Below, piece by piece: positions 1,195-64,000 of a DNA stretch of 64,000 bases. A model generated the notes under the pieces. That model ran no database searches. It saw only the letters and a program-made list of their open reading frames with translations, and was not told the DNA's origin. Origin of the DNA: Macrocystis pyrifera (Eukaryota > Sar > Phaeophyceae > Laminariales > Laminariaceae); NCBI GenBank assembly GCA_031763025.1, contig JASSKH010000026.1, positions 1,178,001 through 1,242,000 of the forward strand, read 5' to 3'. The position numbers were made by a program, and so were the translations under genes. Position 1 is the first letter of the stretch, and every line of letters starts with the position of its first letter.

Positions 1195-1283
1195 AAGAGG
1201 AGAGCAGGGGGCCTGGAGGAGTATGCCACGAGGCCGTCAGGCGGGAATGGTGGCGAGGGTGAAACGGGGGGGGGGGGGGGGGG

Positions 1284-28171: not shown

Positions 28172-28244
28172 TGTTATGAGGCTTAGATTGGGTAGGCGAT
28201 TGGTTAACCTTTTACCTTTAGACCAACGGACTAAGACCTTAACA
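28172..28244 (+). repeat. 5' LTR of mosaic element
   Basis: 73 bp, TGTTATGAGG...GACCTTAACA. It differs from the 3' LTR only by A versus C near position 50. Confidence 0.9.
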
Positions 28245-28275
28245 AATGGCGTCGACGGCAGGACATGGGGCCGAT

Positions 28276-28613
28276 TCGCCAAAAAAATAGTTCGAAAACT
28301 CCAAAGGAGGACCTGGGCAAGCGCGGGCCACGGCCAAAGGGCGGGGCGGCGCTGGTGTAATCTCATGAATTCTGTCAGGTCTGGTTGGGGTGCAGAATTG
28401 GTGAGAGGAGGCGGGGTGTGCCAACCCGGCCTCACTTGATCGGAGGGTGTCGCGAACGGCGGAAAGAGCTTTACCGAGGAAATTTTTTCCATGCCACCGA
28501 GAGGGGTCGTGAGCTTCGGGGTCGTCTGCCCGCAGACCGATGCCCCACACGGCATCAAAAGAGCTGGCCTCAGCCAAAATTTTGGTGCCAGTGTTCAATA
28601 GGTGCTGCTTCAC
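28276..28613 (-). pseudogene. Inverted NADAR C-terminal fragment
   Basis: Reads MKQHLLNTGTKILAEASSFD, VWGIGLRADDPEAHDPSRW and LGKALSAVRDTLRSSEAGLA on the minus strand. It corresponds to 59475-59815 of the full Ty3 element with a few substitutions. The N-terminal half of the domain (the Glu/Lys helix) is missing. Confidence 0.85.
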
Positions 28614-28620
28614 GCCCTCA

Positions 28621-28782
28621 CTGTCGCTTCATGAATAGGGCGTGGTGTTCACGAACGATGTCGTACGCGCGCTGCTGGGAGAGAAGAAGCTTGATTGGTC
28701 CCGGGTCGTCCAAATATCGAAGCAAATATACTCCATCCGTCGGTGGAGTTGCGCTGATTTTTCCGAGCCACCACAGACCGTC
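28621..28782 (-). pseudogene. Inverted Ty3 integrase C-terminal fragment
   Basis: DGLWWLGKISATPPTDG, YLLRYLDDPGPIKLLL and VREHHALF are typical of the C-terminal barrel after the integrase core in this Ty3 lineage (recalled family knowledge). Confidence 0.65.
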
Positions 28783-28905
28783 ACTGTCGCTCGCGTGAAC
28801 CGCCGCAACTCCGCCCTCTCCGACGCTCTGCGTCCGGTCCCCAAATTTGACGTTGGTGGTTGGGTGTGGGTGTACAATACGGCGGCCACCATCCGCCAGG
28901 GCGCG
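28783..28905 (+). pseudogene. Sense Ty3 integrase fragment
   Basis: LRPVPKFDVGGWVWVYNTAA then TIRQGAK, the strand-rich segment just after the integrase core. It joins at about 28905 to a gag-terminal sequence (CCCGAATGGACGCCAGCC). Confidence 0.65.
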
Positions 28906-29510
28906 AAACCCGAATGGACGCCAGCCAGGCACCTTCCGCGCCGGTAACTGACAGGTCGACGGCGGTTCGGCTTCTCCTGACCGCCCGCCGCCAGCATTGT
29001 CAGGAGAAAAAACCTTGATTTCACAAGATGCTCGCGTCCCAGGCTCGCTCAGTACTCCGCTCCCGCCCCGCGCGTTACTCCGTACTTCGGACCGACGCAG
29101 CGACTCAGCTCCACAGCTTTTTCCGGGGAGCCCTCGGGCGCCTTCCCCGACGTCGGGAGCCCGCGCCTCAAACGCCGCTCCCCTCAACCTGGGCACGAGA
29201 GCAGGCGCGATAAACGCCTCTCTCCCAAACCACGCACCGCGCAACACGACGGGTGTCGCGCCGTCGCGTCGTTTTTTTTCAGCGAGGGTGTCCCCCTCCT
29301 ACACCTCGCGGCCATGCGGTGGCGGTCGGTTTGAGGTGCGGGAAGGCAAACACCCTCGCTGAAAGTGAGGCCGGGTTGGCACACCCCGCCTCCTCTCACT
29401 AATTCTGCACCCCACCCAGACCTGACAGAATTCATGAGACTACACCAGCGCCGCCCCGCCCTTTGGCCGTGGCCCGCGCTTGCCCAGGTCCTCCTTTGGA
29501 GTTTTCGACC
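28906..29510 (+). pseudogene. gag-end/leader and post-NADAR segments
   Basis: 28906-29350 is almost identical to 58112-58554 (only scattered differences, for example a 3-bp indel near 29262). 29362-29510 matches 59665-59815. A short duplicated word CCTCGCTGAAAGTG marks the junction. Confidence 0.85.
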
Positions 29511-30000
29511 TATTTTTTTGGCGACATGCCGAAGTATTTGCCGGCGGGGTTGATGCAATACGTGCTCAATAATTTCTCCAAGAAATCCCTTCCGTACCAC
29601 GTCACCGAGGACGACGTTTCGACCCCTCTTGAACGACTCGAAGTGGAAAAGATTACTGAACATCAATCGGTTAGAGGTCGAGGTGGCGTCATCGCGGTGA
29701 TGTACGAGACGCACTGGAAGGGACTTTCCCGGCCATCCTGGGAACGGGAAATGGACCTTCAGCTCTCGCCACGCAATTTTGCGCTACTGGGTCGGCACCC
29801 CGAACCAACACCGCCAAACCAACCGCCTGTATCGCCGAATGAGAATTGGCGCGGCACAACGGGAGCTTTCCCGGAGTAACGGCGAGCGGTTTCTAGCACC
29901 CGGCTATGGTTGCGTATCGCACGCCGATTGGCTCCGCCGATACAGCAACACTGTACTTCCCAACGGGGCCCACTTTTGGTACAATGGCGACGACGGCAGA
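29511..30000 (+). pseudogene. Ty3 integrase tail with chromodomain-like region
   Basis: Sequence PKYLPAGLMQYVLNNFSKK, then ERLEVEKITEHQSVRGRGG, IAVMYETHWKGLSRPSWERE (chromodomain-like: a V-x-KI strand, then THWKGL and PSWE). After a frame change near 29780 it reads YWVGTPNQHRQTNRLYRRMR and GAHFWYNGDDG. This part lies beyond the window end in the full element, so the mosaic shows what that element's C-terminus probably looks like. Confidence 0.7.
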
Positions 30001-30044
30001 ACATGGGTCGTTGGTCGTGAGTTCGAATCTCACGTCCACCATGA
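29984..30044 (+). other. tRNA 3'-half-like sequence with CCA
   Basis: Contains a T-arm GTGAG-TTCGAAT-CTCAC followed by GTCCACCA. The 5' acceptor strand is missing. It follows the GDDG coding point, where the sequence also resembles the PBS region (TGGCG-CGACGGCAG-ACATGGG). Confidence 0.5.
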
Positions 30045-30178
30045 AATCGCTTTTTAAAGAAAAGTGAATTTCCTCATGTCAAGAACCTGAAAAAATACTT
30101 CTGGATCCCCAGAAATTGGAACCGCGTGTTGGTGTCACGCGTCGACCCGTATATCCGGTCGGTTCCAGGGCGGGGGGG

Positions 30179-30251
30179 TGTTATGAGGCTTAGATTGGGT
30201 AGGCGATTGGTTAACCTTTTACCTTTAGCCCAACGGACTAAGACCTTAACA
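30179..30251 (+). repeat. 3' LTR of mosaic element
   Basis: 73 bp, preceded by a G-rich tract and followed by CGTA. Confidence 0.9.
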
Positions 30252-48815: not shown

Positions 48816-49180
48816 GTACATCAACTAACTCTTTTTCGTAGTATTTATTTGATTGTTGATTAATGTGGCTAAATCGGGTTGATCTAATCATGACTATTAT
48901 TAATAGTTGATTATAATCAACTAACTCAATCAACCCACGGCGACGATGTGATTTTATTCATAATGATTATTATTGGTTGATTATATTCATCATTTTCAGC
49001 TGCCACTATTCGCGTGCTTACCAATACAACAACGAAATGCGCCATACTATCTGCTAAAGTATGCATGCTAGATTGCCGCCATCCTTCGCTGCGCTGCAAG
49101 CAGTGGCCAGACGGGACCCTACAATTGACTGAGTGTTGGGTAGCAGTCCATTCAGAATGTCAGACGTCTCCTGGTCGGAC
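48816..49180. other. AT-rich DNA with GTTGATTA palindromes
   Basis: Repeated GTTGATTA/TAATCAAC words, including GTTGATTATAATCAAC (about 48906). The last part is ordinary sequence leading to the LARD-like insertion site. Confidence 0.5.
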
Positions 49181-49184
49181 CAAC

Positions 49185-49567
49185 TGTTACGGTCGCAGAC
49201 AGTCACAACCCTTTTCCACCCCTTCAGCTTCTTATATAGCTCATCTTGCCGCCGGCAGTGCCCCCCTACACCAGAGGAGTACCGACTGAGACAACTAGGA
49301 GATGGCTCAGGCGTATGTTCCGCTAGCGGGGTGGAACGACGGGAATGCAGGTGGCAGTCTTTGCATCGAACTGAAAGAGCTTGAGTGTGTGCATGTGGGA
49401 CGGACGGCCCAACGGCCCTATTTGTTCTGGGAACGAATTAATACATGATGTTTTGGAGGTGGGTGTATCTGAGCAGCTTTTCGAGGAATGTAAGCTATCT
49501 CGGCCGGAGAGCCCGACGAGATTACACCATCATGCATGACACGCGCGCACCGCTCGACTCTATAACA
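49185..49567 (+). repeat. 5' LTR (383 bp)
   Basis: TGTTACGGTCGCAGACAGTC...CTCTATAACA. Contains CTTATATAGC, a likely TATA element. Confidence 0.9.
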
Positions 49568-50116
49568 TGGTGGCCAATCCGATAGCATAGTCTGTGCCTG
49601 CAAACGACCGTGAGCGCCTAAAGGAGAACCCTCTTTGCAAGCTTTCTACTATATATGTTGCTCCTCCTGATTGATGTTGCTCCTCCTGCTGGTTGATGTT
49701 GCACCTGCTGGTCGGGGTTTCTCCTGAAGTGTGAGGGGGTTCTTGGGGACTTTCCTTCTCACCTGGATCACCATACTGTGTAGACTCGTACCGGGTATCT
49801 CTCAATACACTACAGCCGATAAGTAGCGACGCCACTAGAGAAACATTACACTGACGAACGGGACATGGTACAGCGGGCAATCGGCCACGGCGGCCTCCGG
49901 CATGCGGCGGGTTTGCTCCCCGTCCGCGTGTCGCTCGGCGCCGTGGCTCCCGAGTTTTCACAGAAGATATGATAGCACAGTACCCACGGAGGGTGGCCAC
50001 CGCAGAGGCGATGACTAGCCCCGAATCCGTAGGCTGTGCTGTGAGAGGTGTAGCACGAGTGAACGAGGGCTGAGTCCACACCCCTCAAGATAGGGCCGCG
50101 TGGTAGGAATCGTTCA

Positions 50117-50134
50117 GCAGAGTCCGTCCTCTGC
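50117..50134 (+). promoter_or_regulatory. Leader stem-loop 1
   Basis: GCAGAG-TCCGTC-CTCTGC, part of a 130-bp direct repeat with 50540-50680. Possible RNA structural signal of the LARD transcript. Confidence 0.4.
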
Positions 50135-50609
50135 CGAGCTTCGGTATGCACGAGTGTAGTAGTCTCACGCACATCTCACACGCGTCCGACGGGATGCTGG
50201 TCGATGGATTTTCCGGCATCCCGTGTATCGCATCATATTTCGGCGCCGTGTTTCGGCGCCAAGCCCACTCTGATTGATTCAGACGGGGGCGAGGTTGCTC
50301 TTGGTTCCCTATGCCGAATCCTAGACTAATACGCTCATAGACGCGGAGAGTAACCACAGCGTAAACAGCAGTAGTGAACCCTAGCTTTGAGCAAAGAGTT
50401 CGACGGTACGTGCAGCGGGGAGGTCGTGACTGAGTCCGTCGTTCAGAGGAACCTTCGGTAGGTCACGATCGGTTCGCACCACGGTCCCCAAGCGGGAACG
50501 CGGGCGGACACCGTGTGGGTCTTGCGGCTGCACGCCGTGGGAGGTTTAGTGTGGGTGAACGAGAGCTGACTCCGTCCCCCCGTGAGGGGGGGTGGCTTAC
50601 GCCTCGTTT

Positions 50610-50627
50610 AGCAGAGTCCGTCCTCTG
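50610..50627 (+). promoter_or_regulatory. Leader stem-loop 2
   Basis: Same loop and a 7-bp stem (AGCAGAG/CTCTGCT). It is again followed by GAGCTTCGGTATG. Confidence 0.4.
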
Positions 50628-50879
50628 CTGAGCTTCGGTATGCGTGAGTGTAGTAGCCCCACACACTCCTTTCATGTGTTCAACGCAGGTCTGTTTAGTG
50701 GATGGAGGTATCCTGCAGTCTGCCGCGGCACATAGTCTCTTTTTAGTGCGCAGCGCCCACCCCTCGTCACATGTGAGCTTTGCAAACTCAGGCGAGGGAG
50801 GGGGGGCTAGTCGCGACGCCCCGCTAGATGAAATAATGTCCCCCATGTGGATCATACTAAATCATATACACCGGGTATA

Positions 50880-52037
50880 AAGCATGAGAAGAAGACAGCA
50901 CCCGAGCAGTGAACCACACGCTCATTAATAATACAGGCGCCGTATTAAATACTACAGCAATTTATACAAAAAAAAACTATTACGCTAACCAGCAACAACG
51001 CAGACAATCTTAGCACACGAGGCATGAGAGCAGTCCCCTCCGTACGCCAGCGGGGGACCGAGGGGACAGGGCAGGGAGGTGAGAGGAATCGGTGAAAGAC
51101 TGTACGGCCGGTTTTCTCGCCAGAGGGCCCGCAGAGAGAAGCAGGGGGATGAGAAGAGACGAATAAGATCCGCTGCTGACGGCACCACCTACCGCATGAA
51201 CGTCGCTAACCCCGTCCACAAGCTGCATATTTCGTATCCATACTTGATCCCACTCCCATACAGAAGCGCTTGCAGTCCTACAGGAACCCGGGTAGCATGC
51301 GAGATACCTTATCTCGGTACTTCGGTATCATACGGCTGCAAGGACGGGTCGATGTCGCTTGCTCGTTTTAGTGATTCGATGTTTGACGGTCATGTAGAGA
51401 CGCAGGCAGTCATGCTCGCGGGGTTCGTCCGGATACGCATCGACTGTACAGCAGTAGTATTAATAGGACTCGGCGTGTTTTTCAACTTTCGTTGTCAGAA
51501 CTCGTTAGCCGCATGTGCGGTCAATTTTAAAACTTACCGGCATGCTGCGTAATTTGCAACAACGTCCAGTGTTGCACTTGTCTCGAACATACCGGCATGC
51601 TGCACGAAATTTCAACAACTGGTTACGTAGTACTGCATTGGTAATATTGTACTACAGCAGTATTAAAATAGCAGTCCTGGTGTTTTGTTTTTATGAGTTG
51701 TTGTCGTGGTTCTCACATTCAACTCATCGCCGTGGTCAGGACACGAAAATACCTTGGTAAAGTACTGGGTTAATCAGTACTCATGTATACAGCGGTATAG
51801 ACCCACCACATGAATAAGAACCTGACAGAAACAACTTGAGGCTCACTTTTTCTACGGACGCCAATAAATTGCATCGAGATGAGGCGCTCCGCGGAGAGTA
51901 CGTCTTCAATAATATATTATACCCGGCACCTGGTATGTGTTGTGGTTGCTTTGGGTTTTGTTTGGTTCATGTTGTGTTTTGTGTCCTCTTGTTTTTTCGC
52001 GTTATACCTTTATGCCCTCATGGTGTCAGAAAGGAGA
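50880..52037. other. LARD interior, no gene recognised
   Basis: Frames such as 51079-51552 have no recognisable domain. ACCGGCATGCTGC occurs twice (51537, 51590). Confidence 0.4.
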
Positions 52038-52725
52038 GATAGGCCAGTGCCTCGTGGAAAGCGAATAGTTTCGTCAACTAAGCTTACACGGGGTCTGTGC
52101 CAGTCCTACCTGTGCTTGCATTATGATGGATTAAAATAGATGGGCCTGTACCTCGTGGGAATGGTAGTGATGTATTTTCAGTCGTGGGAGACAACCACGA
52201 GCTTCCACGAGGTCTGCGCCTATCCTACCTATCTGGCATACGTTTTGTGTTTATTGGAGATGGGTCTGTGCCTTGTGGGGACATAGTTATGGTCTTGAAC
52301 CGAACCTCCACAAGGTCTGCGCCTGTCCTACCTGTACCTGTTGTTGGGATGGGTCTGTGCCTTGTGGGGACATAATTATGGTCTTGAACCGAGCCTCCAC
52401 AAGGTCTGTGCCTGTCCTACCTGTACCTGTTGTTGGGATGGGTCTGCGCCTTGTGGGGACATGGCTATGGCCTTGAGCCTCCACAAGGTCTGTGCCTGTC
52501 CTACCTGTACCTGTTGTTGAGATGGGTCTGTGCCTTGTGGGTACATGGCTATGGTCTTGAACCGAGCCTCCACAGGGTCTGTGCCTGTCCTGCCTGTGCC
52601 TGTTTGTTACTGTATAGAAGAGATAGGTCTGTGCCTCTTGGGAGTGGTGCTGTGTCTTTACCCGTCGTGGGAGACAGATACGAACTTCCACGAGGTCTGC
52701 GCCTGTCCTACCTACACGGTCTGTT
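52038..52725 (+). repeat. Tandem array, about 85-100 bp units with internal hairpins
   Basis: Seven to eight units. Each has GTGCCTTGTGGGGACAT or a variant and, about 40 bp later, CCTCCACAAGGTCTG, so CTTGTGG/CCACAAG can pair. GCCTGTCCTACCTGTACCTG ends most units. Outer units are more diverged. A different hairpin (GTTGCTGTC-CC...GAGA-AGCAAC) follows at 52810 and 53025. Confidence 0.8.
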
Positions 52726-54099
52726 GGTAAGCTCTCTACAATTTTACTTCGTTTATCTTGTGGGTGCATGCATAATGTTTGGCTTTGTCTCAGCCTGGGG
52801 GACCATTGTTGCTGTCTCCATCCGGCAGAGAGATAGCAACAAGGTCTCTGGAATACTGAAATGTTCGGCTGATATGCCCCGCCGCTTTCAGCATGCTGTG
52901 CGGGCAGCAAAGTTTTGTTTTGCTTTGGTTAGTTTGTTTCGTTTTCTTTTGTTTGTATCTCGCTTGTTTCCTTCTTGAGGCGGGGTGAATGCCCAGAGTG
53001 GTCGGGCCTGTACTTATTGGGACCGCTGTTGCTGTCGCCATGCTAAAAGGAGACAGCAACCAGGCCCCCCTAGCTCTGAGCCTTGCCACGGGGCTTGTTG
53101 CCTGTTTGTCGTTTAGTTTTATGTCGTTCGTCCGTTTGTTTGATTGCTCCTCTGTTTGTTCTTGTTTGTTCTGTTCGCTTTTGTTGTTTATTTGGTCGTT
53201 TGTTTGCTTGTGTATTTGTTTGCTGCAAACCCGCTTGCCCGTGCATCCGACCGCACTGGCTGTGACCTTTACTGGCGCCCGCACTCCGTGGCGTGTGTCC
53301 GGCAGTTCACTGCCGTCCCGTGTCCGCTGTGCGTGCGTGTCCATCGTGGTTATTGTTGTTCCTTATCACTATGTTCATTTATCTTCATGTTTTGGCGGGT
53401 GAAGGACACATCAAGGAAAATATTGCCCCGATATGTGTCTTATAGCCTGGACCTGACTGTTAGGCTCGCCAGTTGCGTGGACCTGACTGTCAGGCTCTCC
53501 AGTTCTCTTTGTGCCACATCCTGACACCGTGGCAGCCACGTTTTGCAATGCAGTGTTGCCTCACCCCGCCGGAACTGCCCAATGCACGGTAATCATATTG
53601 TTCCCCTGTAGCGCGCGATGTTTTTCTTTATACTATTTTCAACACGGTACCTGCATGAGGTGCAAACCCTTCCAGATGTACCGACCCGTATTTATTGTTT
53701 TGGTGTTGTTGCAATGTTCTCGCGCTGATACGGGCTGAATGACTCCGGTTCAGGGATGGACTTACAGAGTCGAGAAATTAGCAGTTGGTCGAGAAATCAT
53801 CATGGTTGGTATCCAGTCCACATACGTAGGTATTTTACAACCGATACCGCGTGTTCGTGCTATCCCTTGCGTAGGTAGTGCACAAAGGGGGGTGGCGAGT
53901 ATGGCTAGATTAGCGAGTGCAAGAATATGTAGCCGGGACAGCCGAGCGGCGGTTATACTCTGATAGCTACAGCAACAAGACTTTTCATGACATGAATCGC
54001 CTCACTCTTAATCGACTCGACCGCCCAGAAACTTACCATGAGAATCATGATCACGCCGCACGCCACCGAACCATGCTCGCAGAAACCACTCATGCTGAG

Positions 54100-54330
54100 A
54101 CCACGCCCGCCCCCTGCGCCCTCGCTGCTTGGAGCCCTTGTTGACAGCATCCCTCAGACTCACCTCGGCACCGTCTCCCTTCAGACATCTGGGGAAGGGG
54201 GCCTGACTGATAGACAGCTGGGCACCCTCACGTTTCACGACACGCCGTCTCCCGTTGGACATCTGGGGAAGGGGGCTTGACTGACAAGACAGCTGGGCAC
54301 CCTCGCGTTTCACGACAGGCTTGCCGTCAT
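54100..54330 (-). repeat. Two diverged units of about 83 bp
   Basis: CATCTGGGGAAGGGGGC, CAGCTGGGCACCCTC and CGTTTCACGACA occur twice. Confidence 0.7.
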
Positions 54331-54614
54331 GCTCGGGGCTTGCCACGGTAGGAATGGCCACGCCAGCGATGGCGCTTCGGTGATCGACACGGGCGTGCGC
54401 GCCGTCCGTGTAGCCCCGACCACGTGACTCGAGTAGTGCAGGCACCTCGGGCGGTGGCCCCGGCCCCTCTTTTCCGCACGGCGTCGGCGCGTTCGCCGTC
54501 GACGGTGGTGGACGGGCAGCGTCCAAGAGGGGGCGGCGGTGCAGAGAAGCAGAAATCGTCAGCGGTGTCCAACGGGCCGTGGGATGACCACGGCAGTACC
54601 CTGGGGTAGCTCGT

Positions 54615-55334
54615 TTGGACCCCCCAGTTCGCGCAGATGGCGTGGGGAGCGGACCAGGGCTCGGAGGGCACTCGACTATAGCAGCACCAATCAATGTACA
54701 CGCTACTAGACAGGAGGGTGGTCAGCGCTACCGAGGTCGCGAGATGGGGGTGCCGCGGCGGGTACCTCGACGGGGAGGCGTCACTGGGTCTCGGAGGCGG
54801 AGTCACCGGTCAGGAGGGTGGTCAACGCTACCGGGATCGCGATATGGGGGTACCGCGGCGGGCACCTCGACGGGGAGGCGTCACTGGGTCTCGGAGGCGG
54901 AGTCACTGGACAAGCTTCACTCCGCCGCAGTTGGACACGTTTCACGCGTGGTGGAACTTGTACGATCCGAGCAGCGAGCGGAGCCGCCCCGCAGCCCGAG
55001 ACGAGGGGGCGAGAAGACGCCCCACGCTGAGGAGAAAGGAGGCGCCGAGAAAGTTCGCGATCGGCACGAAAGTCAGCCGGTCGAGGGCGGAAAGGGGCGC
55101 GCGGGGCAACTCGAGCAGGTCTACGACTTTACTCGCCGTATTGGCGTGTCCCACGAGGGGATTCAGAGTGAGAAGGCGAGGGTGGGGCCGCGGGCGCGCC
55201 CTTCCGAAGATCGAGCAGCTCGTCTGGGGTCCATCTTCAAGTACAGCCGCGCGCAACACCGGCTAACCTGTCTTGGTGGTGTCGGCTTCGGAGCTTCGGG
55301 GGGGTTGATGGACGAGGAGCGTCTTACACTATAG
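54615..55334 (+). CDS. LARD reading frame, unassigned
   Basis: 239 residues beginning MDPPVRADGVGSGPG. It is Arg/Gly/Glu-rich and contains a 102-bp tandem duplication (54711-54812, 54813-54913). An alternative frame over the second half reads PPQLDTFHAWWNLYDPSSE, which looks as protein-like. A gag-type product is possible, but I see no zinc knuckle or known gag motif. Low confidence that either frame is translated. Confidence 0.25.
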   Translation: MDPPVRADGVGSGPGLGGHSTIAAPINVHATRQEGGQRYRGREMGVPRRVPRRGGVTGSRRRSHRSGGWSTLPGSRYGGTAAGTSTGRRHWVSEAESLDKLHSAAVGHVSRVVELVRSEQRAEPPRSPRRGGEKTPHAEEKGGAEKVRDRHESQPVEGGKGRAGQLEQVYDFTRRIGVSHEGIQSEKARVGPRARPSEDRAARLGSIFKYSRAQHRLTCLGGVGFGASGGLMDEERLTL

Positions 55335-56076
55335 CTCCGGGGGGGCGATTCTGAGAGCGCTTGTTCTAAGCGGGGGAGGATGAGCGGGATGCCGCTGGGG
55401 GGCGTTGTTCTAGGCCAGCGGCACTTTGGAAAAACCACGCCACTTAGCTCGGCAACAGCACTACGAATTTGCAGGAGTTCATTTTTGAGTTTTTTTTTTG
55501 GTAGGCGCCAGGTGATTACTATGTTGAAGTCATGCAAAAAAGACCCTGTCATCTCGCATTACCGTCGCGATCTGTGTATCTATGGCGGGAGTAGTTGGCA
55601 ATAGGAGACTATTGTCCGAAGGAACGGGGTTCCTTGCGATCTCTGACATTCTGTTTTTGCCTAGTTTTCACCTCGGAGGCGCGACGATTGTGATCTTTCT
55701 TATCGATTGGCACAATAGTGTTTAGGGGGAACTGTAGGGAGTTTAGGAGTCAAGGGAGCATTCAGGAACGTAGTTGGAGGGGATGTAACAGGGTACGCCG
55801 CGTTAAGAGAACAAGGCGACGCATGTAGTGTGCCTATTGGGGGAAGGCCTTCCCTATCGGAAAATAAAAATAAATTAGCCGGGTTTGCTTCCCTCGTTTG
55901 GCGGACATAGAATACCTTGGGTCCACCGTCTAGGATATCGCGTGGCTTGCCTTGTCCGGCTAAACCAGCTGGGGAGGATGTTACGGTGGTAATCCAAGGA
56001 TCCGAGGGGTTTCCAAAAGTAGACATGGCATTTAGGCAAAAGGGGAAATGCGAATTGAACCCGGAGACTGGGGGGA

Positions 56077-56452
56077 TGTGAGCAGACAGTCACAACCCTT
56101 TTCCACCCCTTCAGCTTCTTATATAGCTCATCTTGCCGCCGGCAGTGCCCCCCTACACCAGAGGAGTGCCGACTGAGACAACTAGGAGATGGCTCAGGCG
56201 TATGTTCCGCAAGCGGGGTGGAACGACGGGAATGCAGGTGGCAGTCTTTGCATCGAACTGAAAGAGCTTGAGTGTGTGCATGTGGGACGGACGGCCCAAC
56301 GGCCCTATTTGTTCTGGGAACGAATTAATACATGATGTTTTGGAGGTGGGTATATCTGAGCAGCTTTTCGAGGAATGTAAGCTATCTCGGCCGGAGAGCC
56401 CGACGAGATTACACCATCATGCATGACACGCGCACCGCTCGACTCTATAACA
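56077..56452 (+). repeat. 3' LTR (376 bp)
   Basis: Differs from the 5' LTR in the first bases (TGTGAGCAGACAG), three substitutions and a CG deletion. Confidence 0.9.
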
Positions 56453-56473
56453 CAACAGCCCCAGGCCTACACA

Positions 56474-58157
56474 ATGGCTCTGGTGGTGAGCCTTCGGAGG
56501 GCCCATGAAGCGTCTTCCACCACGGTTCAATGGCCGAGACCGGCCGCGTACCAGCTTCATTGCAGGCGGCGGTCGCGCGCTGCTCCCCAGGACCCCCCCC
56601 TCTCTTACTCGATCCCGGAAGCTGGACACCGCCCCACCTCCTCCAGCGGTCACCGGGGAACTGGCGACAGCTCTGTGGCCGGAGACCGCGCTCGCAGCCG
56701 CGCCGGCGACCAGGCCCGCCAGCGCACGAGGGTTGGAGGGGATCCGGCCGGTCCGGACGGCAGGCTCCGCCGGGGCTCCGGCGGGGAAACGGGTGGCAGT
56801 TCGTCTCGGCGCAACGGGACTGGACGGAGAAAAAAACGGTGGAAGGGGAAGGAGCGATCGGGTGACGGTCGGTACGGCCCGCGGGACAACTCTGGTCGAG
56901 CTACTTCCCCCAGCTCTTCCTCGGACGGCGACACCAGAGCCCCCGTTCCAGCGAAGCACGCAATCAGCAAGAGGTGTCGCGCACCCTCGCAGCAGGATCA
57001 TCGGGACCGGAGGCGTTCACGCTCCTCCTGAGGTTGCTGAGCAACCACTTTGACCGCACCAACACGGGGGCCAGCTACACCAAGTTGCATAATTTTGGCG
57101 TGGCTAACGGGACCCCTTTTTGCGATTTTAGTCGTGCATTGCGAGGGGTGGTGTCCGCAGCGACGGGGACTGAACGTGTTTTGGCACCGGGGGGGTGGAG
57201 GTCGTTTTGGAGGTAGTTCGGATGACAGTGAACGAGCAGTACCCTAGCTTGATGCCGACGCTGTACCCGGGAGTTTTGGCTACGGTATCGAGGCCGTTCG
57301 GCACCTTGGACGCCATGTGGTTAGCTTTCGAGACTCTTGCGAATAATAAGACACCTGCCGTCAACGGCGAAAAATATTTTTCTTGGCCTGCTTCTTCGAC
57401 GGGTGCGCGGTCATCCGCCCCGTCGGGGCCCCGGCCCGCCAATATTGGTCGCGGCCAGGGCCGGACGCTTTCCCAGTCGCCTTCTTGGCAGACGGGATCG
57501 CGCAATAATCCGCTTGTGATGAATGTCCACAAATCCATCCCTGACTGCCTCGACCCGTGGCTTGACACCTCTTCCAGCTGCTGGCCCCTTGAAGAACACC
57601 ACTATGCCGAAATTCACGCCGTATGCATGTCCATCCAAACCGAGGACCCTCCCCTCTGGAGCGGCCTACTTTCATCGTCCGCTCGCGCAGCCGCCCTCAG
57701 CGAAAACCGAGGACGCTGTTTAAACCGTCACAAAGACACACACTCTCTTCGACAGTGTAGGCACCCCTTTTTAAACCTTAGTGGTATCTTGAACCCCGAC
57801 CTCGGAACGCTCGGCGACGACGGCGAGGCGTTCCGTCGTTGGCAAGAACGCATGATCAGACACCGCCGCGAGAACATTTCACGACCGAACAAATACAACC
57901 AGAAGAAACACAGGCGTCGCCCCGGCCCCTCGCGTGGGCAACATCACGGTCAGGGTCAGCAACACAGACAAGGTGATGGCTACGACACACACGCGGCACG
58001 AGGACACCAGCAGTCTCACCCCGGCCATCATGGTGGTTCGACCGCCCCTGCCTCTTCCGCCCCGGCTCCCGTCTCGGGGGTTCGCTACGGCGCCTCGCAT
58101 ACCTCGGGCGGAAACCCGAATGGACGCCAGCCAGGCACCTTCCGCGCCGGTAACTGA
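56474..58157 (+). pseudogene. Ty3 gag, frame-broken
   Basis: Candidate start MALVVSLRRAHE at 56474. The Arg/Ser-rich N-terminus runs to a stop at 57031. The matrix/capsid-like part continues in another frame at about 57020-57190 (LLSNHFDRTNTGASYTKL), then in a third frame from 57195 (VEVVLEVVRMTVNEQYPSLM), the last change falling in a G7 run (57189-57195). The C-terminal part has a zinc-knuckle position, CLNRHKDTHSLRQC, in which the second Cys is Arg. LNPDLGTLGDDGEAFRRWQ and a basic, His/Gln-rich tail then follow to the stop at 58157. Confidence 0.75.
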
Positions 58158-58972
58158 CAGGTCGACGGCGGTTCGGCTTCTCCTGACCGCCCGCCGCCAG
58201 CATTGTCAGGAGAAAAAACCTTGATTTCACAAGATGCTCGCGTCCCAGGCTCGCTCAGTACTCCGCTCCCGCCCCGCGCGTTACTCCGTACTTCGGACCG
58301 ACGCAGCGACTCAGCTCCACAGCTTTTTCCGGGGAGCCCTCGGGCGCCTTCCCCGACGTCGGGAGCCCGCGCCTCAAACGCCGCTCCCCTCAACCTGGGC
58401 ACGAGAGCAGGCGCGATAAACGCCTCTCTCCCAAACCACGCACCGCGCAACACAACGGGTGTCGCGTCGCGTCGTTTTTTTTCAGCGAGGGTGTCCCCCT
58501 CCTACACCTCCCGGCCATGCGGTGGCGGTCGGTTTGAGGTGCGGGAAGGCAAACACCGAAACCCCGAGATCTCGGTTGAAGCTCGACTCGGTGTTTCCTC
58601 GCAATAACGGTGGCCGCTCCACCCTTTTTCCTAGTAAGGAGGAGTCGACAAGATTAGCTACCTCATCCCCCTTCCCCACCAGGTCTACAGGACGGAAGCT
58701 CTCTCCGGTGGATCCTTTGTTGCCCCCCGCCCGAGCACCGTTCTTGAAGACGTCTACAGGGTCTGCAGGCCCTCTTTCGTCTTCGCGCACGCCACTCCAC
58801 GTGCGCAGCGCTCCTACGGCTCCAGTGGAACAGGAAAAACCTGGCACTGTCCGTCGAGCCAGTGGTGACTCCACGGCCTCCGGTCAGATCACCCGGACAG
58901 CATACCCGTTAAATTCGGAAGAAGAATCGTAGCTCTCGTCAAGCAGAACGGGCTCAGAGCCCCCTGCCCCCT
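58158..58972 (+). other. gag-pol junction/leader, frame unclear
   Basis: Two overlapping frames (58203-58607, 58459-58932), Ser/Pro/Arg-rich without a domain. A T8 run at 58480 lies where they could exchange. Nearly identical to 28906-29350 over its first 400 bp. Confidence 0.5.
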
Positions 58973-60148
58973 TTGGTCCAGGACAGAGATCATCGGGCGC
59001 AGCAAGAGAACCTTCTGGCGATTTTTTGCCTACGGGCAATGGTGACACAGAGCCAGTATATGTGGAACGGGACTCGTCTCGTGCACCAGGGGCTCAGTGT
59101 TCTCAGAGAAGTACACTCCCCCCCCCCACACGCCGCAACTGCGGCCACCGACGACTCGGCACCGTCGGTTTTTGACCCTACTCTCGAGTATACAACCGAG
59201 CGGGAAGTACTGTTCTGGCAGCCCCCCTCTTATTTTTCGCATTGGTCCCCCTCGTCTTTTGTCGTCGACGATGTATCATATTCCTGCGCGGAGCAATATA
59301 TGATGGCTGAAAAGGCTCGCCTTTTCCAGGACCACGGCACAGCGGAGCGGATTATGGCCTCGCCAGACCCACGCGAGCACAAACGCCTCGGTCGAGGCGT
59401 GCATTACTTTGACTGCGCTATCTGGGACCGTGTTCGGGAAGACGCCGTCCTTGCTGGTAATTTTGCCAAATTCTCGCAGAACCCGGTCATGAAGCAGCAC
59501 CTATTGAGCACTGGCACCAAAATTTTGGCTGAAGCCAGCCCTTTTGATGCCGTGTGGGGCATCGGTTTGCGGGCAGACGGCCCCGAAGCTCACGACCCCT
59601 CTCGGTGGCGTGGAAAAAAACTGCTCGGTAAAGCTCTTTCCGCCGTTCGCGACACCCTCCGATCAAGTGAGGCCGGGTTGGCACACCCCGCCTCCTCTCA
59701 CCAATTCTGCACCCCAACCAGACCTAACAGAATTCATGAGATTACACCAGCGCCGCCCCGCCCTTTGGCCGTGGCCCGCGCTTGCCCAGGTCCTCCTCTG
59801 GAGTTTTCGACTTGTTTTTCTGACGCGCCGGCTGATCACAGCCCGGAGATTTTGGCTGTCGCACCTAGTGTCGACCCCTCCCTCGCGCTGCCAGAACACG
59901 GCCCCTGCCTCGTCGGGGGCACCATTACCCTCGATGACGCCTCTTTTACAACGAAAATCGCGATTCACAGCGGAGCTGGCGTTCTTGCACCTTTTGGTTG
60001 CGTGGCGCTTCTCGACACTGGCTCCCCGCAGACTTTCATCCCACGAGATGTTTTGGATCGCATGCACTCGGTTGGTGCGGCCTCCCTCGCGTGCGAGCAG
60101 AAAGGCGCCCCTCGTTCTTGGGGGGTTTTGGCGAACCGGCCCCTCTGA
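58973..60148 (+). CDS. NADAR domain plus retropepsin N-part of Ty3 pol
   Basis: 391 residues in one frame. Residues ~80-232 are a NADAR (YbiA/DUF1768-type) domain: FWQPPSYFSHWSP, CAEQYMMAEKARLF (Glu107 and Lys114 at the conserved E...K helix), NFAKFSQNPVMKQHLLSTG, VWGIGL and GKKLLGKALSAVR (the usual Gly-x-Asn is Gly-Lys-Lys). Then a Pro-rich linker and a retropepsin with LLDTGSPQTFIP (DTG at 348-350). The frame ends at a G6 run (60120-60125). NADAR enzymes cleave N-glycosidic bonds, including ADP-ribose on guanine. Within a polyprotein it would be released by the protease or stay attached. Confidence 0.85.
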   Translation: MVQDRDHRAQQENLLAIFCLRAMVTQSQYMWNGTRLVHQGLSVLREVHSPPPHAATAATDDSAPSVFDPTLEYTTEREVLFWQPPSYFSHWSPSSFVVDDVSYSCAEQYMMAEKARLFQDHGTAERIMASPDPREHKRLGRGVHYFDCAIWDRVREDAVLAGNFAKFSQNPVMKQHLLSTGTKILAEASPFDAVWGIGLRADGPEAHDPSRWRGKKLLGKALSAVRDTLRSSEAGLAHPASSHQFCTPTRPNRIHEITPAPPRPLAVARACPGPPLEFSTCFSDAPADHSPEILAVAPSVDPSLALPEHGPCLVGGTITLDDASFTTKIAIHSGAGVLAPFGCVALLDTGSPQTFIPRDVLDRMHSVGAASLACEQKGAPRSWGVLANRPL

Positions 60149-60813
60149 AGACTTCGACGAGTGTGCGCCTGAGCGTCCAATTTTATCGAGAAAATGAGCC
60201 TACTTGCTCCCTCGCAGTTTGGGCCTGCGTGGTCCCCCCCCCGGTGATGCAGCATGCTGTACTATTGGGCCGTGACAGCTGGATGCGCTTTAATAGCCGC
60301 TCCTACCGCTCTCTGCCACCTCGGCCGTCTGATCAACGCGTTTTTGGCGAGCTGGAGTTAGTTCACCATGCCCCCACAGGCATGTCCGTGTACGCCATCG
60401 ACTCCGCCGCTTTGGGTGGAGGCTTCCATCTACGCTACGAGGGCGCAGCAGGCGTCACCCTGTCAGACGATCCCCAGCTGCTTGCTGTTAATTTGGTTCG
60501 AAGCGATGGCTCCCCGGCCCTCACTGGACACTGCTTGGTCGACATGATGCCCCAGCCCGACCTACTCTCGGTCGAGGAGCACTTCGTCTCCTCCGGACGA
60601 CAGGTTCTTCCCCTCGTTGGAGTGGCGGCTCTCGAGCCGGTGGATGTCCTCGGCGTCGCCCACGCCCCACTGCTGAGCGTTCCGCTGGACGTTTTGCAGC
60701 AGGACAACCGAGCCCCCAGCCCTCCCTCCGGACTAGGTGAGGTGTGTCCGGTTTCAGCAGTTACTGCCCCCCCCCCTCGCAGCTCCAGCCTCGCCCTCGC
60801 CTGCACTGCTTGA
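60127..60813 (+). pseudogene. Retropepsin C-part/linker in shifted frame
   Basis: After the G6 run the sense frame is +1-phased: FGEPAPLKTSTSVRLSVQFY, VMQHAVLLGRDSWMRF (the retropepsin ILGRD-like strand), then LSVEEHFVSSGRQVLPLVG up to the C10 run (60767-60776), where it returns to the frame of the RT. Confidence 0.75.
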
Positions 60814-63520
60814 GCGTTTGACCTCAGAACAGCGCGCTTCGTTCCTGCGCGTCTGGGCACGCTTGCCCACACATCTGCGGGAGGTGGCTTTTGATCTCCA
60901 CGGCACAGGCTGGACCCCTGCCGTCATTGAACAGCTGGGGGACGTTCTCTGCGAATTTCCTGACGTTTTCTCGAAGTCCAAGTCGGATTTTGGTTCCTGC
61001 TCGTTGATGCCTTTCGTGATCTCGGTCCCGGAAGGAAACGCTCCTGTCACGTCCAGGCCGCACCGCATCAACCCCATCCTGGCCAAGGAAGTGGAGGCCA
61101 CCTTGGATCAGTACCTAGCGGCTGGTCTGATCCAGCACTCGACTTCTCCGTACTCGAGCCCGCTGGTGGTCATCCCGAAGAAGTCTGGAGGCGTTCGGAC
61201 CACCGTGAACTACAATAAACTCAACCAGATCAGCAAACTCAGCCAGCTGCCTATCCCTCGCGTGGACCAAGTCCTCGACTCCCTGGGGAAGGGACGGGTG
61301 TTTCCCTTCTTCGACTTGGTCTCCTCGTTCCACCAGATTACCGCGCACAAGGACACCGTCCCTCTTACGGCGTTCTGCACTCCCACGAGCCTTTACGAAT
61401 GGCTCGTCATGCCCCAAGGCAGCAGTGCTTCGCCCGGCTGGTTCGTCAAAGTGATTAACGAAGTCATTAAAGGCCTGGCACAGGTGACGGCCTACCTTGA
61501 TGATGTGATCGCTTTCGACTCTGACCCGACGACCCACGTCAAGACGATACGAGCCCTCTTCGAACGCCTGCGCAAACACAACCTCAAGCTCTCCCCCTCG
61601 AAGGCTCGCCTCGGCGCCACGGACGCCAATTTTCTGGGCCACTCTATTTCGCCCGCGGGTATAAGCCCTAATGCGGACAAAGTTTCGGCCTTGCTGAAAA
61701 TGCCCATGCCCAAGAACCTCAAGCAGGTCCGCGCCCTGATGGGCGGCGTAGGATATTATCGCAAATTCCTGCCCGACCTGTCTAAACGGATACGTCCTCT
61801 CACCGCCCTTCTCCGGAAGGGGGTCAAGTATGTCACGCCGGCTATGGAAGTTATCGTCCGCCAGATCCTCGCCGAGCTCGCGGCCCCACCGATTTTGGTC
61901 TTCCCTGACTGGGATGCCGTAGCCGATGGCTCCCGCCCCTTCCACGTGTACTGCGACGCCTGCATCGACGGTTTCGGTGCCGCGTTCGAACAAGAACAAC
62001 CGGACGGCTCGGTACGGCCCATTGCTTATATCAGCCGCGCTACCCTCGATTCCGAAAGGCACTGGACACCGTTGGACCTGGAAGCTGGCAGCATTGTCTG
62101 GGCTATCAAACGACTCCGAGGTTACCTGTGGGGCACGAAGGTTCGAATATTTTCGGATGCCAAAGCACTTGAGAGTATCGCCAAAGTAGGGGACCACAAC
62201 GCGCGAGTCCAGCGGTGGCTCGAGTTCCTCACCGCGTTCGACTACACCCTCGAATACCGCAAGGGCAGCGCCAACGGAAATGCTGACTTTCTCTCCCGCT
62301 TGCCAGAGCCCGCCACAGAACACGACCGCAGTCGGTCTAGCTGCCTCAACCCCGTCGAGGACGGTGGTATCTTCCTCATCCGGGCCTGCGGGCTTCGCAC
62401 TCGCTCTTCGCCGACCCCTGGTGTAGGTTTGGGTGGGCTGGTGTCCCGCAGTGAAAGTGCCGTCTTGGGTAGGCTACCTCTCGCCCCTTCGGATTTTCGC
62501 GATTTTCGCACACACGGGCCACGTATGAGGATTGACGACCTCTCTGCTCCTTCGGGGAGATTCGTCGCTTGTGTATCTGCCTCCGTCACCACCGTCGACC
62601 GCCGTCCTGGCTTGGGGGATTTTTCACCCCCCGCCACCGCCGCTTTCGCTTCGGTTTTTGTCGTACCCTCCGGGGGCGACCAGGGCTCTGCAAAAGCCCC
62701 CGCTGCAGCGACGATTGTCGCCCAGCGCGCTCCTCCCCCGACGAGCACTTTACAGATCGACGATTCCGTCGTGAGCACTGCTCCGGCCGCGTCTTCCCTC
62801 GCAGGCCAGGGCTCTGCAAAAGCCCCCGCTGCAGCGACGATTGTCGCCCAGCAGCGCGCTCCTCCCCCGACGAGCACTTTACAGGTCGACGATTCCGTCG
62901 TGAGCACTGCTCCGGCCGCGTCTTCCCTCTCAGGCCAGGGCTCTGCAAAAGCCCCCGCTGCAGCGATGATTGTCGCCCAGCGCGCTCCTCCCCCGACGAG
63001 CACTTTACAGGTCGACGATTCCGTCGTGAGCACTGCTCCGGCCGCGTCTTCCCTCGCAGGCCAGGGCTCTGCAAAAGCCCCCGCTGCAGCGATGATTGTC
63101 GCCCAGCGCGCTCCTCCCCCGACGAGCACTTTACAGGTCGACGATTCCGCCGTGAGCACTGCTCCGGCCGCGTCTTCCCTCTCAGGCCAGGGCTCTGCAA
63201 AATCCCCCGCTGCAGCGACGATTGTCGCCCAGCGCGCTCCTCCCCCGACGAGCACTTTACAGGTCGACGATTCCGTCGTGAGCACTGCTCCGGCCGCGTC
63301 TTCCCTCTCAGGCCAGGGCTCTGCAAAAGCCCCCGCTGCAGCGACGATTGTCGCCCAGCATGCTCCTTCCCCGACGAGCACTTTACAGGGAAAAGATTCC
63401 GCCGTGATCACTGATCCGGCCGCGTCTACCCCATCGCCGCCTGGCAACCCGGCGCCTCCGAACGTTTTGCCGTCTTCAGGCCGCATCTCATCGCGGACGC
63501 GCCGACGAACAGGCGCCGCC
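60737..63520 (+). CDS. Ty3 reverse transcriptase-RNase H
   Basis: RT: SPYSSPLVVIPKKSGGVRTT, motif A FFDLVSSFHQI (Asp193), motif B MPQGSSASPGW (225-235), motif C YLDD (253-256), FLGHSISPAGI and GYYRKFLPDLS. RNase H: YCDACIDGFGA (Asp407), DLEAGSIVWAI (Glu449), FSDAKALES (Asp474), GNADFLSRLP (Asp517); all four acidic residues are present. Domain order and YLDD mark Ty3/Gypsy. After residue ~530 a variable linker with six 42-residue repeats precedes the integrase. The reading frame changes near 63480-63520 and continues in the next frame. Confidence 0.92.
62682..63440 (+). repeat. Six 126-bp (42-residue) repeats in pol linker
   Basis: Unit GQGSAKAPAAATIVAQRAPP followed by PTSTLQVDDSVVSTAPAASS. 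The second unit has one extra codon and the last is diverged. 126 is a multiple of 3, so additional plus- and minus-strand frames (281, 414 and 246 codons) are open by chance here. Confidence 0.92.
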
Positions 63521-64000
63521 GCTGGCGCCGTGCCCCTGCTGTTGATTATGGCTTCGGGCCCGGTGGGACCCCTAGACCATCAGCCCGGCGCGCTACCACC
63601 CCGCTGCGAGCCCCACGGCCACGACCGCCCGCACCCGTCGTTTTGGCCCCGACTCCTGCCGCCTCGTCCGTCCCGACGGTACCCATCCCGCCCGGCCGCG
63701 ACCGCACCGAGCCCGTGGGAACTCCTCTGTTACGACTTCCGCCGCCAACTGACGCACCTCCCGTCACCTCGACCGACTTGGACGCACTCGGCGCAGCTGC
63801 CGAGTTTCAGTTCGGTGATTCCGCAGCGCGCTATTCGCACGCCGATTGGGCTCGGGAACAAAAGACTGAGCCCGCGTGCAATGCCGCCATGCGCTACATA
63901 GCCCTTGGCCGACCGGAAGTTTTGCCAGACGATTTTTTATCAGGTTTCCCTTCCCACCAGCGCCCTCCCCTTTCGGAAGTTCAAGAGCTGGCCACCAAAG
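63520..64000 (+). CDS. Start of Ty3 integrase region (incomplete)
   Basis: Frame 1 reads a Pro-rich linker, then DLDALGAAAEFQFGD, SHADWAREQKTEPACNAAMR, YIALGRPEVLPDD and SHQRPPLSEVQELA. This is the segment that precedes the HHCC zinc-binding region of integrases in this lineage (recalled). HHCC and DDE are outside the window. Confidence 0.65.

What the first reader, a model, noticed from the sequence alone, without database searches (positions are those of the whole stretch)
59210..59668. NADAR domain embedded in a Ty3/Gypsy retrotransposon polyprotein
A NADAR-type fold with its key Glu/Lys helix and WG-G motif sits upstream of the retropepsin in the same frame. Family members hydrolyse N-glycosidic bonds: YbiA acts on riboflavin precursors, and others reverse guanine ADP-ribosylation made by DarT-type enzymes. 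An element-borne copy could erase ADP-ribose placed on its RNA or cDNA by a host defence. The function is inference. I recall mention of NADAR near retroelements but cannot verify it.
Basis: partly seen in the sequence, partly recalled or inferred. Interest (0 to 1): 0.9.

Follow-up and report, generated by a model that had tools for sequence, protein, structure and literature searches.

The report
NADAR domain in kelp Gypsy retrotransposons
A family of jumping genes in a brown alga carries a complete copy of an enzyme domain known from other proteins to remove ADP-ribose; the arrangement was already reported in another brown alga, and what the enzyme does for the element is still unknown.

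Summary
Window 59213-59662 encodes a full NADAR domain (Pfam, E=2e-48) in one open frame with a retropepsin-like DTG motif, upstream of RT-RNase H. It is no chance transduction. The host genome (giant kelp by assembly statistics) has at least 150 NADAR hits; all 47 loci fetched from them (40 distinct) carry the protease downstream. NADAR occurs in 25 of 50 close RT relatives (21 of 24 with room for it) and 0 of 70 distant ones; NADAR and RT distances correlate (r=0.88). 11 of 13 ADP-ribose-contact residues are invariant in 9 element rows; pN/pS is 0.41-0.52. The lineage is published: Gypsy-12_Ec32 of Ectocarpus (PMC12477816). Added here: the kelp families, active-site conservation, selection, and a tree placing brown-algal cellular NADARs, not bacteria, beside most element copies. 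The window copy is broken (5'-truncated, split by a nested LTR element, frame-broken). Most likely mechanism, inferred: a particle-borne de-ADP-ribosylase acting on the element's nucleic acid. Counter-defence is plausible but untested. Structure prediction did not finish; the host DarT search did not complete.

The parts
59213..59662 (+). NADAR domain, residues 81-230 of ORF 58973-60148; YbiA subtype (catalytic Glu at residue 187)
   Evidence: Pfam PF08719 E=2e-48; TIGR02464; PDB sequence match 8bau/2b3w; contact residues mapped
58973..60148 (+). Open frame holding NADAR, Pro-rich linker and retropepsin-like start (DTG at 60014-60022)
   Evidence: protease by motif and by conservation downstream of NADAR in 47 of 47 fetched loci
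58459..58932 (+). N-terminal extension of Pol, in another frame than the NADAR ORF in this copy but continuous with it in L059
   Evidence: versus ORF of L059, compared by eye
59998..60813 (+). Continuation of the protease region in another frame (frame break in this copy)
   Evidence: compared by eye with P0016, P0028 and L059
60737..63901 (+). RT (about 61172-61648) and RNase H (about 61931-62239) frame; 126-bp minisatellite 62680-63431 follows
   Evidence: Pfam RVT_1 3.9e-25, RT_RNaseH 5.7e-28; repeats
56453..58157 (+). Gag region by position (no Pfam gag hit in ORF 57195-58157), frame-broken, lacking about 460 bp present in L069/L073
49155..49184 (+). 30-bp left remnant of the same NADAR element; no further match to the 800 bases of L069/L073 tested to its left (5' truncation)
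   Evidence: 100% match to L069/L073
49185..56452 (+). Different LTR element nested inside the NADAR element (LTR matches 49195-49567 and 56082-56452, 98.7% identical; outer ends placed by eye)
28172..30251 (+). Small LTR-like element (73-bp direct repeats at its ends, apparent 4-bp target duplication by eye) holding rearranged fragments of the NADAR element, including NADAR/linker pieces in both orientations

Best explanation
The window holds a decayed copy of a brown-algal Ty3/Gypsy lineage whose Pol begins with a YbiA-type NADAR domain. Shown: the domain, its fixed place before the protease, its presence in the near RT relatives and absence from the distant ones sampled, conserved ADP-ribose-binding and catalytic residues, and pN/pS below 1. 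Inferred: NADAR is made as part of Pol, so it enters the virus-like particle with RT. There it hydrolyses N-glycosidic ADP-ribose adducts (most likely on guanine, the activity measured for other NADARs including YbiA-type ones) on the element's RNA or cDNA, keeping the template readable. Whether the adducts come from a host defence or from ordinary host ADP-ribosylation is open. My confidence is about 0.97 for identity and lineage, 0.8 for an active N-glycosidase, and 0.4 for action on the element's own nucleic acid.
For: Profile and PDB matches. Copies: 150 of 150 scored own-genome hits exceed the Pfam cut-off, out of 1264 first-look candidates. 47 of 47 fetched loci (40 distinct) have protease downstream. 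RT search: NADAR in 25 of 50 near relatives (some partial; 21 of 24 with RT starting at residue 440 or later, a threshold I set after seeing the table) and 0 of 70 far ones. NADAR-RT distance correlation r=0.88, 21 proteins, 0 of 5000 permutations as high. Contact residues: 11 of 13 invariant across 9 element rows (two of them family A), p=5e-6. In kelp copies E43, R79, W89, R93, E125, D130 and W133 are kept in 27/27 family A and 14/14 family B, K50 in 26/27 and 14/14, K75 in 27/27 and 13/14. pN/pS is 0.41 (A) and 0.52 (B), against RT 0.51 and 0.22. Third-position excess in A p=0.006. Guanine-ADPr hydrolysis by every NADAR subtype tested there, YbiA included, is in PMC11125620; see also PMC11543638.
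Against: No direct evidence of activity, substrate, particle packaging or a host writer of nucleic-acid ADP-ribose. YbiA and phage NADARs failed to rescue DarT1 toxicity in cells although active in vitro (PMC11125620), so in vitro activity does not fix the biological role. Contacts D86 and R93 are not invariant. The third-position excess in family B is not significant (p=0.19), and family B NADAR pN/pS (0.52) is higher than its RT (0.22). 3 of 24 near proteins with room for NADAR lack a match. Copies analysed were the best-scoring or longest-frame hits, which favours intact ones.
Confidence: 0.4

Rival explanations
1. The domain is an active N-glycosidase but its substrate is a small molecule: damaged or reactive nucleotides, riboflavin intermediates as for YbiA, or soluble ADP-ribose signals. 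It would clean the nucleotide pool near reverse transcription or blunt a host signal.
For: TIGR02464 (riboflavin intermediates N-glycosidase) match above its cut-off; PMC9503650 proposes that phage NADARs mostly act on soluble ADP-ribose derivatives, though it assigns those in polyproteins of eukaryotic RNA viruses to macromolecular ADP-ribose (passages).
Against: Placement in a polyprotein with RT resembles the RNA-virus case. A small-molecule enzyme need not ride in Pol. Nothing here separates the substrates.
Confidence: 0.25
2. The domain works mainly as a nucleic-acid or protein binding module (packaging, RNA recruitment, interaction with host RNA factors), catalysis being secondary.
For: [quoted passage not shown]
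Against: Catalytic and ADP-ribose contacts are more conserved than the rest of the domain and kept in nearly all kelp copies examined. In SNA-3 itself, mutating key residues of domains 2 and 3 harms function.
Confidence: 0.15
3. RNA-end repair: NADAR removes ADP-ribose by-products of NAD-dependent RNA repair (KptA/Tpt1-type) from the element's RNA or its tRNA primer.
For: Proposed link of NADAR with RNA processing in PMC9503650; PMC12477816 suggests RNA processing for these elements.
Against: No KptA or ligase domain was found by Pfam in the element ORFs tested; the host search for PF01885 did not complete.
Confidence: 0.1
4. Neutral passenger: a host or bacterial gene transduced once by a copy and carried along.
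For: The window copy itself is broken.
Against: Present in three kelp families, in Ectocarpus and in other records, at a fixed place, with conserved active site and pN/pS below 1.
Confidence: 0.03

Closest known systems
Gypsy-12_Ec32 and its NADAR-bearing Gypsy lineage of Ectocarpus (PMC12477816)
   Same: [quoted passage not shown] among the listed RT relatives the nearest ones with an organism name are Ectocarpus proteins; the paper reports a C-terminal chromodomain for this family.
   Different: Host is a kelp. At least three divergent families (A, B, C) with 48-58% NADAR identity between them. The paper suggests possible acquisition by horizontal transfer from bacteria; the tree here puts brown-algal cellular NADARs among most element NADARs. 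The paper's figures and supplements were not seen, so residue-level overlap with its Fig. S2 cannot be excluded.
Phytophthora nicotianae NADAR (PDB 8bau)
   Same: Best solved match; E43, K50, K75, R79, W89, R93, E125, D130, W133 all matched in the window copy; removes ADP-ribose from guanine (PMC11543638). That 8bau is this protein is inferred: the residue numbers fit with an offset of 2, and the paper's text holds the code once.
   Different: Orphan protein, not in a retroelement; D86 is Cys and Y84 is Phe in the window copy.
E. coli YbiA (PDB 2b3w)
   Same: YbiA subtype with catalytic Glu rather than Asp or His.
   Different: Stand-alone bacterial protein; low sequence score.
NADAR domains in polyproteins of eukaryotic RNA viruses (PMC9503650)
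   Same: NADAR embedded in the replicase polyprotein.
   Different: RNA-dependent RNA polymerase viruses, no protease-RT-integrase order.
NADAR in ORF1 of Tx1 LINEs of the Pacific oyster (PMC12477816)
   Same: NADAR carried by a retrotransposon.
   Different: Non-LTR element, reported as divergent; not examined here.

Membership tests
NADAR superfamily | Profile match above curated cut-off | tested here: met
   165.2 bits versus 35.1
NADAR superfamily | Conserved E43 and K50 (Phytophthora numbering) | tested here: met
   E107 and K114 in the window copy
NADAR superfamily, YbiA subfamily | Catalytic Glu (E125) rather than Asp or His | tested here: met
   E187 in the window copy; 27/27 A and 14/14 B copies; definition from PMC11543638 and PMC11125620
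NADAR superfamily | NADAR fold | not tested
NADAR superfamily | N-glycosidase / guanine de-ADP-ribosylase activity | not testable with these tools
   Needs an assay
NADAR-Gypsy lineage of brown algae (Gypsy-12_Ec32 type) | NADAR at the N-terminal part of Pol before the protease | tested here: met
NADAR-Gypsy lineage of brown algae (Gypsy-12_Ec32 type) | Ty3 order protease-RT-RNase H-integrase | tested here: met
   Window ORFs (protease by motif only) plus integrase H2C2 and rve in adjacent L058 (rve 30.8 bits, just under its cut-off 32.6)
NADAR-Gypsy lineage of brown algae (Gypsy-12_Ec32 type) | RT close to that of Ectocarpus NADAR elements | tested here: met
   11 proteins named Ectocarpus with RT 53-72% identical, 6 of them with a NADAR match, then a drop to 27-36% for the far proteins; no RT tree was built
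NADAR-Gypsy lineage of brown algae (Gypsy-12_Ec32 type) | C-terminal chromodomain | tested here: inconclusive
   Chromodomain-like stretch seen by eye in L058; no Pfam match
DarT1-associated NADAR antitoxin | Asp in place of E125 | tested here: not met
   Glu in 41 of 41 kelp copies examined
DarT1-associated NADAR antitoxin | Linked DarT gene | tested here: inconclusive
   No DarT match among the element ORFs scanned with Pfam; the genome search for PF14487 did not complete

The most novel reading that the evidence does not exclude
The element brings its own nucleic-acid de-ADP-ribosylase in its particle because brown algae mark retroelement RNA or cDNA with ADP-ribose as a defence. This would be the first retroelement counter-measure of that kind. 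The brown-algal cellular NADARs that sit inside the element tree would be domesticated copies turned into host enzymes, or the donors.
Probability: 0.12. Interest if true: 0.85.

Novelty: new member of a known kind. Interest (0 to 1): 0.42.

Why it matters
If the domain is active in the particle, this lineage would be the first retrotransposons known to me to carry an eraser of nucleic-acid ADP-ribosylation, and would point to a role for that modification in eukaryotic genome defence, where to my knowledge it is poorly documented. Many near-identical and divergent natural copies with mapped catalytic residues make the question directly testable with purified domains. The tree also questions the published suggestion of transfer from bacteria.

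Tried and rejected
Chance match or single transduction: rejected. DarT1-type antitoxin: rejected as membership (Glu instead of Asp). The repeat at 56082-56452 was first taken as the NADAR element's own 5' LTR. It is the 3' LTR of another element nested inside it: the genome search (40 scored of 420 candidates) shows five further pairs 7.0-7.3 kb apart on one strand, beside the window pair at 6.9 kb and seven pairs 2.1-4.8 kb apart, by my count of the table; and a 30-bp remnant of the NADAR element lies on its far side. LTRs of the NADAR element itself were not found in the 17 copy loci of 10 kb (repeats over 70 bp and over 2.5 kb apart), so insertions were not dated. The IMG/VR scan gave NADARs 40-54% identical (27 loci); 16 were put in the first tree and 5 in the second. 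I did not check their neighbourhoods for retroelements. The prokaryote scan kept 79 loci of 171 confirmed relatives; 9 were used in the second tree. A separate origin of family B's NADAR is not excluded: it sits apart in both trees (100/96 with P0082), but a single element clade is not rejected (AU p=0.31; without B and P0082 p=0.37), and its protease is similarly divergent. The tree used 64 rows, hand-picked mainly from the 162, and is midpoint-rooted; three rows labelled as elements (P0030, P0069, P0123) had no downstream match and were so labelled for their NADAR closeness. A P0091-like cellular gene was sought in the kelp genome (151 matches from 1400 candidates). The places were not checked one by one; one was fetched (L155) and is an element copy, so absence of a cellular gene is not shown. 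Host PARP gave one exon-sized hit of 6 candidates; DarT and Tpt1 searches did not complete.

Full report
What is there. The open frame at 58973-60148 encodes a complete NADAR domain (residues 81-230, window 59213-59662; Pfam E=2e-48; TIGR02464 143.2 bits over a cut-off of 73.7). The solved structures matched by sequence are 8bau (8.4e-15) and 2b3w (1.6e-5). Downstream in the same frame is a retropepsin-like L-L-D-T-G motif (DTG at 60014-60022, motif only, no Pfam hit). RT and RNase H follow in ORF 60737-63901. Integrase H2C2 and rve follow in the adjoining genomic stretch L058 (rve slightly under its cut-off), with chromodomain-like and Tudor-like stretches seen by eye only.

Host. The window lies in a genome of 537,376,219 bases in 223 contigs; one contig seen is 26.5 Mb. 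Table 1 of PMC10498591 gives Macrocystis pyrifera 537 Mb, 223 contigs, largest 26 Mb (passages).

State of the window copy. Only a 30-bp remnant (49155-49184) of the element is found left of a different LTR element (49185-56452), beyond which the NADAR element resumes at 56453. About 460 bp present in L069 and L073 are missing near 56973. The frame breaks between the Pol N-terminal extension (58459-58932), NADAR/PR and RT. So this copy is decayed. Sister copies show the normal order: L059 has NADAR, RT and RNase H in one frame of 1694 aa. L155, a third family, has NADAR and RT in an open frame of 1663 aa that runs off the fetched stretch.

Not a one-off. In the whole genome 1264 first-look candidates were found, 150 were scored, and 150 of 150 exceeded the Pfam cut-off, 24 of them with one internal stop by my count of the table. 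47 of 47 fetched loci (the 30 best, plus 17 of its hits that I chose mainly for long open frames) had the protease downstream. They fall into family A (91-96% NADAR identity to the window copy for the eight 10-kb A loci) and family B (about 50%). After dropping 7 duplicate loci and adding the window copy, 27 A and 14 B copies were analysed.

Lineage. A search with the RT-RNase H part of L059 gave 149 proteins at E up to 1e-20 (only the 7999 best candidates were scored), 120 listed. 50 have RT at least 50% identical; the other 70 lie at 27-36%. NADAR was found by HMM in 25 of 50 near and 0 of 70 far proteins. Many near ones simply start after the NADAR position: of 24 whose RT begins at residue 440 or later (threshold set after seeing the table), 21 have a NADAR match, some partial, and P0243, P0252 and P0265 have none. 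NADAR and RT distances correlate (r=0.88, 21 proteins, 120-aa RT piece, 0 of 5000 permutations as high). Pairwise identities between A, B and C are 51/58/48% for NADAR (A-B/A-C/B-C), 56/63/56% for protease and 79/78/80% for RT. NADAR and protease therefore diverge in step, both faster than RT.

Selection and active site. Using contacts named in PMC11543638 section 12 and the 8bau alignment (chain index is paper number plus 2, my count), 11 of 13 ADP-ribose-contact positions are invariant in 9 element rows (two of family A), where 41 of 161 columns are invariant (hypergeometric p=5e-6, columns taken as independent). The exceptions are D86 and R93. Among kelp copies the positions E43, K50, K75, R79, W89, R93, E125, D130 and W133 are kept in 26-27 of 27 A and 13-14 of 14 B copies. 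In 35 element NADARs from the protein database with at least 85% coverage (the window ORF included), E43, K50, K75, R79, W89, E125, D130 and W133 are each kept in 32-34 of 35. Pooled pN/pS is 0.41 (A, 338 of 351 pairs) and 0.52 (B, 70 of 91 pairs); pairs with fewer than 3 synonymous differences were dropped. Beside it stand RT 0.51 and 0.22 and protease 0.48 and 0.75. Pairs are not independent, and the copies are the best-scoring or longest-frame ones, which biases toward intact domains; 7 of 27 A copies have a stop, those codons skipped. Third-position excess is significant for A (p=0.006) but not for B (p=0.19). A-B synonymous divergence is saturated.

Origin. In a 64-row midpoint-rooted tree 17 element rows, 3 family A rows and the 5 rows I took as brown-algal cellular NADARs form one group without bacterial rows (98/85). 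That they are cellular is inferred from their length and the lack of a downstream match. The quick tree shows the same grouping with support 87. Family B with P0082 stands elsewhere on a long branch, beside bacterial and viral rows, in both trees. Holding all element rows together is not rejected (AU p=0.31), nor is holding those without B (p=0.37), with the cellular rows outside. So acquisition from bacteria is not favoured for most of the lineage. Host donor, domestication from the element, or old shared ancestry remain open, and for family B a separate source too.

Known or new. PMC12477816 (section 5 part 1 and passages read; [quoted passage not shown] My searches for NADAR with retrotransposon (104 papers hold both, 20 listings seen), with Gypsy (2 papers), with LINE and retroelement (2) and YbiA with retrotransposon (1) showed no other paper whose listing is on this subject; 84 papers were not seen. 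I therefore file this as a new member of a known kind.

Function. NADARs of several subtypes, including YbiA ones, hydrolyse guanine-linked ADP-ribose in vitro (PMC11125620, results part 1 and discussion read; PMC11543638, section 12 and passages read), but YbiA and phage NADARs did not protect cells from DarT1. PMC9503650 (passages) argues that NADARs embedded in polyproteins of eukaryotic RNA viruses act on macromolecular ADP-ribosylation by the host. By analogy the best reading is a particle-borne de-ADP-ribosylase for the element's nucleic acid. A host writer is unidentified: PARP gave one exon-sized hit, and DarT could not be searched. The fold was not modelled because the job stayed in the queue.

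Noticed in passing
window 28172-30251: Small LTR-like element with 73-bp end repeats and an apparent 4-bp target duplication, built from rearranged pieces of the NADAR Gypsy element (NADAR/linker pieces in both orientations forming an inverted repeat); one match to the end repeat also lies in L066 at 2469-2541.
   Followed up: partly
window 49185-56452: A different LTR element nested in the NADAR element; its LTR has at least 40 matches genome-wide, some in pairs about 7 kb apart. Four ORFs of 180 aa or more between 49600 and 54600, none resembling Pol by eye, so perhaps non-autonomous.
   Followed up: partly
window 62680-63431: In-frame 126-bp (42-aa) minisatellite between RNase H and integrase, with fewer units in L059 than in the window copy.
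   Followed up: no
L058 3421-4011 (C207:1243421-1244011): Chromodomain-like and Tudor-like stretches after the integrase, by eye; no Pfam match. PMC12477816 describes the Tudor domain for a different Gypsy lineage.
   Followed up: no
P0091, P0105, P0177: Probable cellular NADAR proteins of brown algae with a Cys/His-rich N-terminal motif that sit inside the element NADAR group; possible donor gene or domesticated element domain.
   Followed up: partly
window 1272-2900 and 35180-36842: Long imperfect inverted repeat, about 87-88% identical, arms about 33 kb apart.
   Followed up: no
window 44495-45914: Two arrays of 42-bp tandem repeats.
   Followed up: no
P0115 (eukprot, MMETSP1389): Transcript-derived protein with what reads as two NADAR copies in tandem, both incomplete, by eye.
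   Followed up: no
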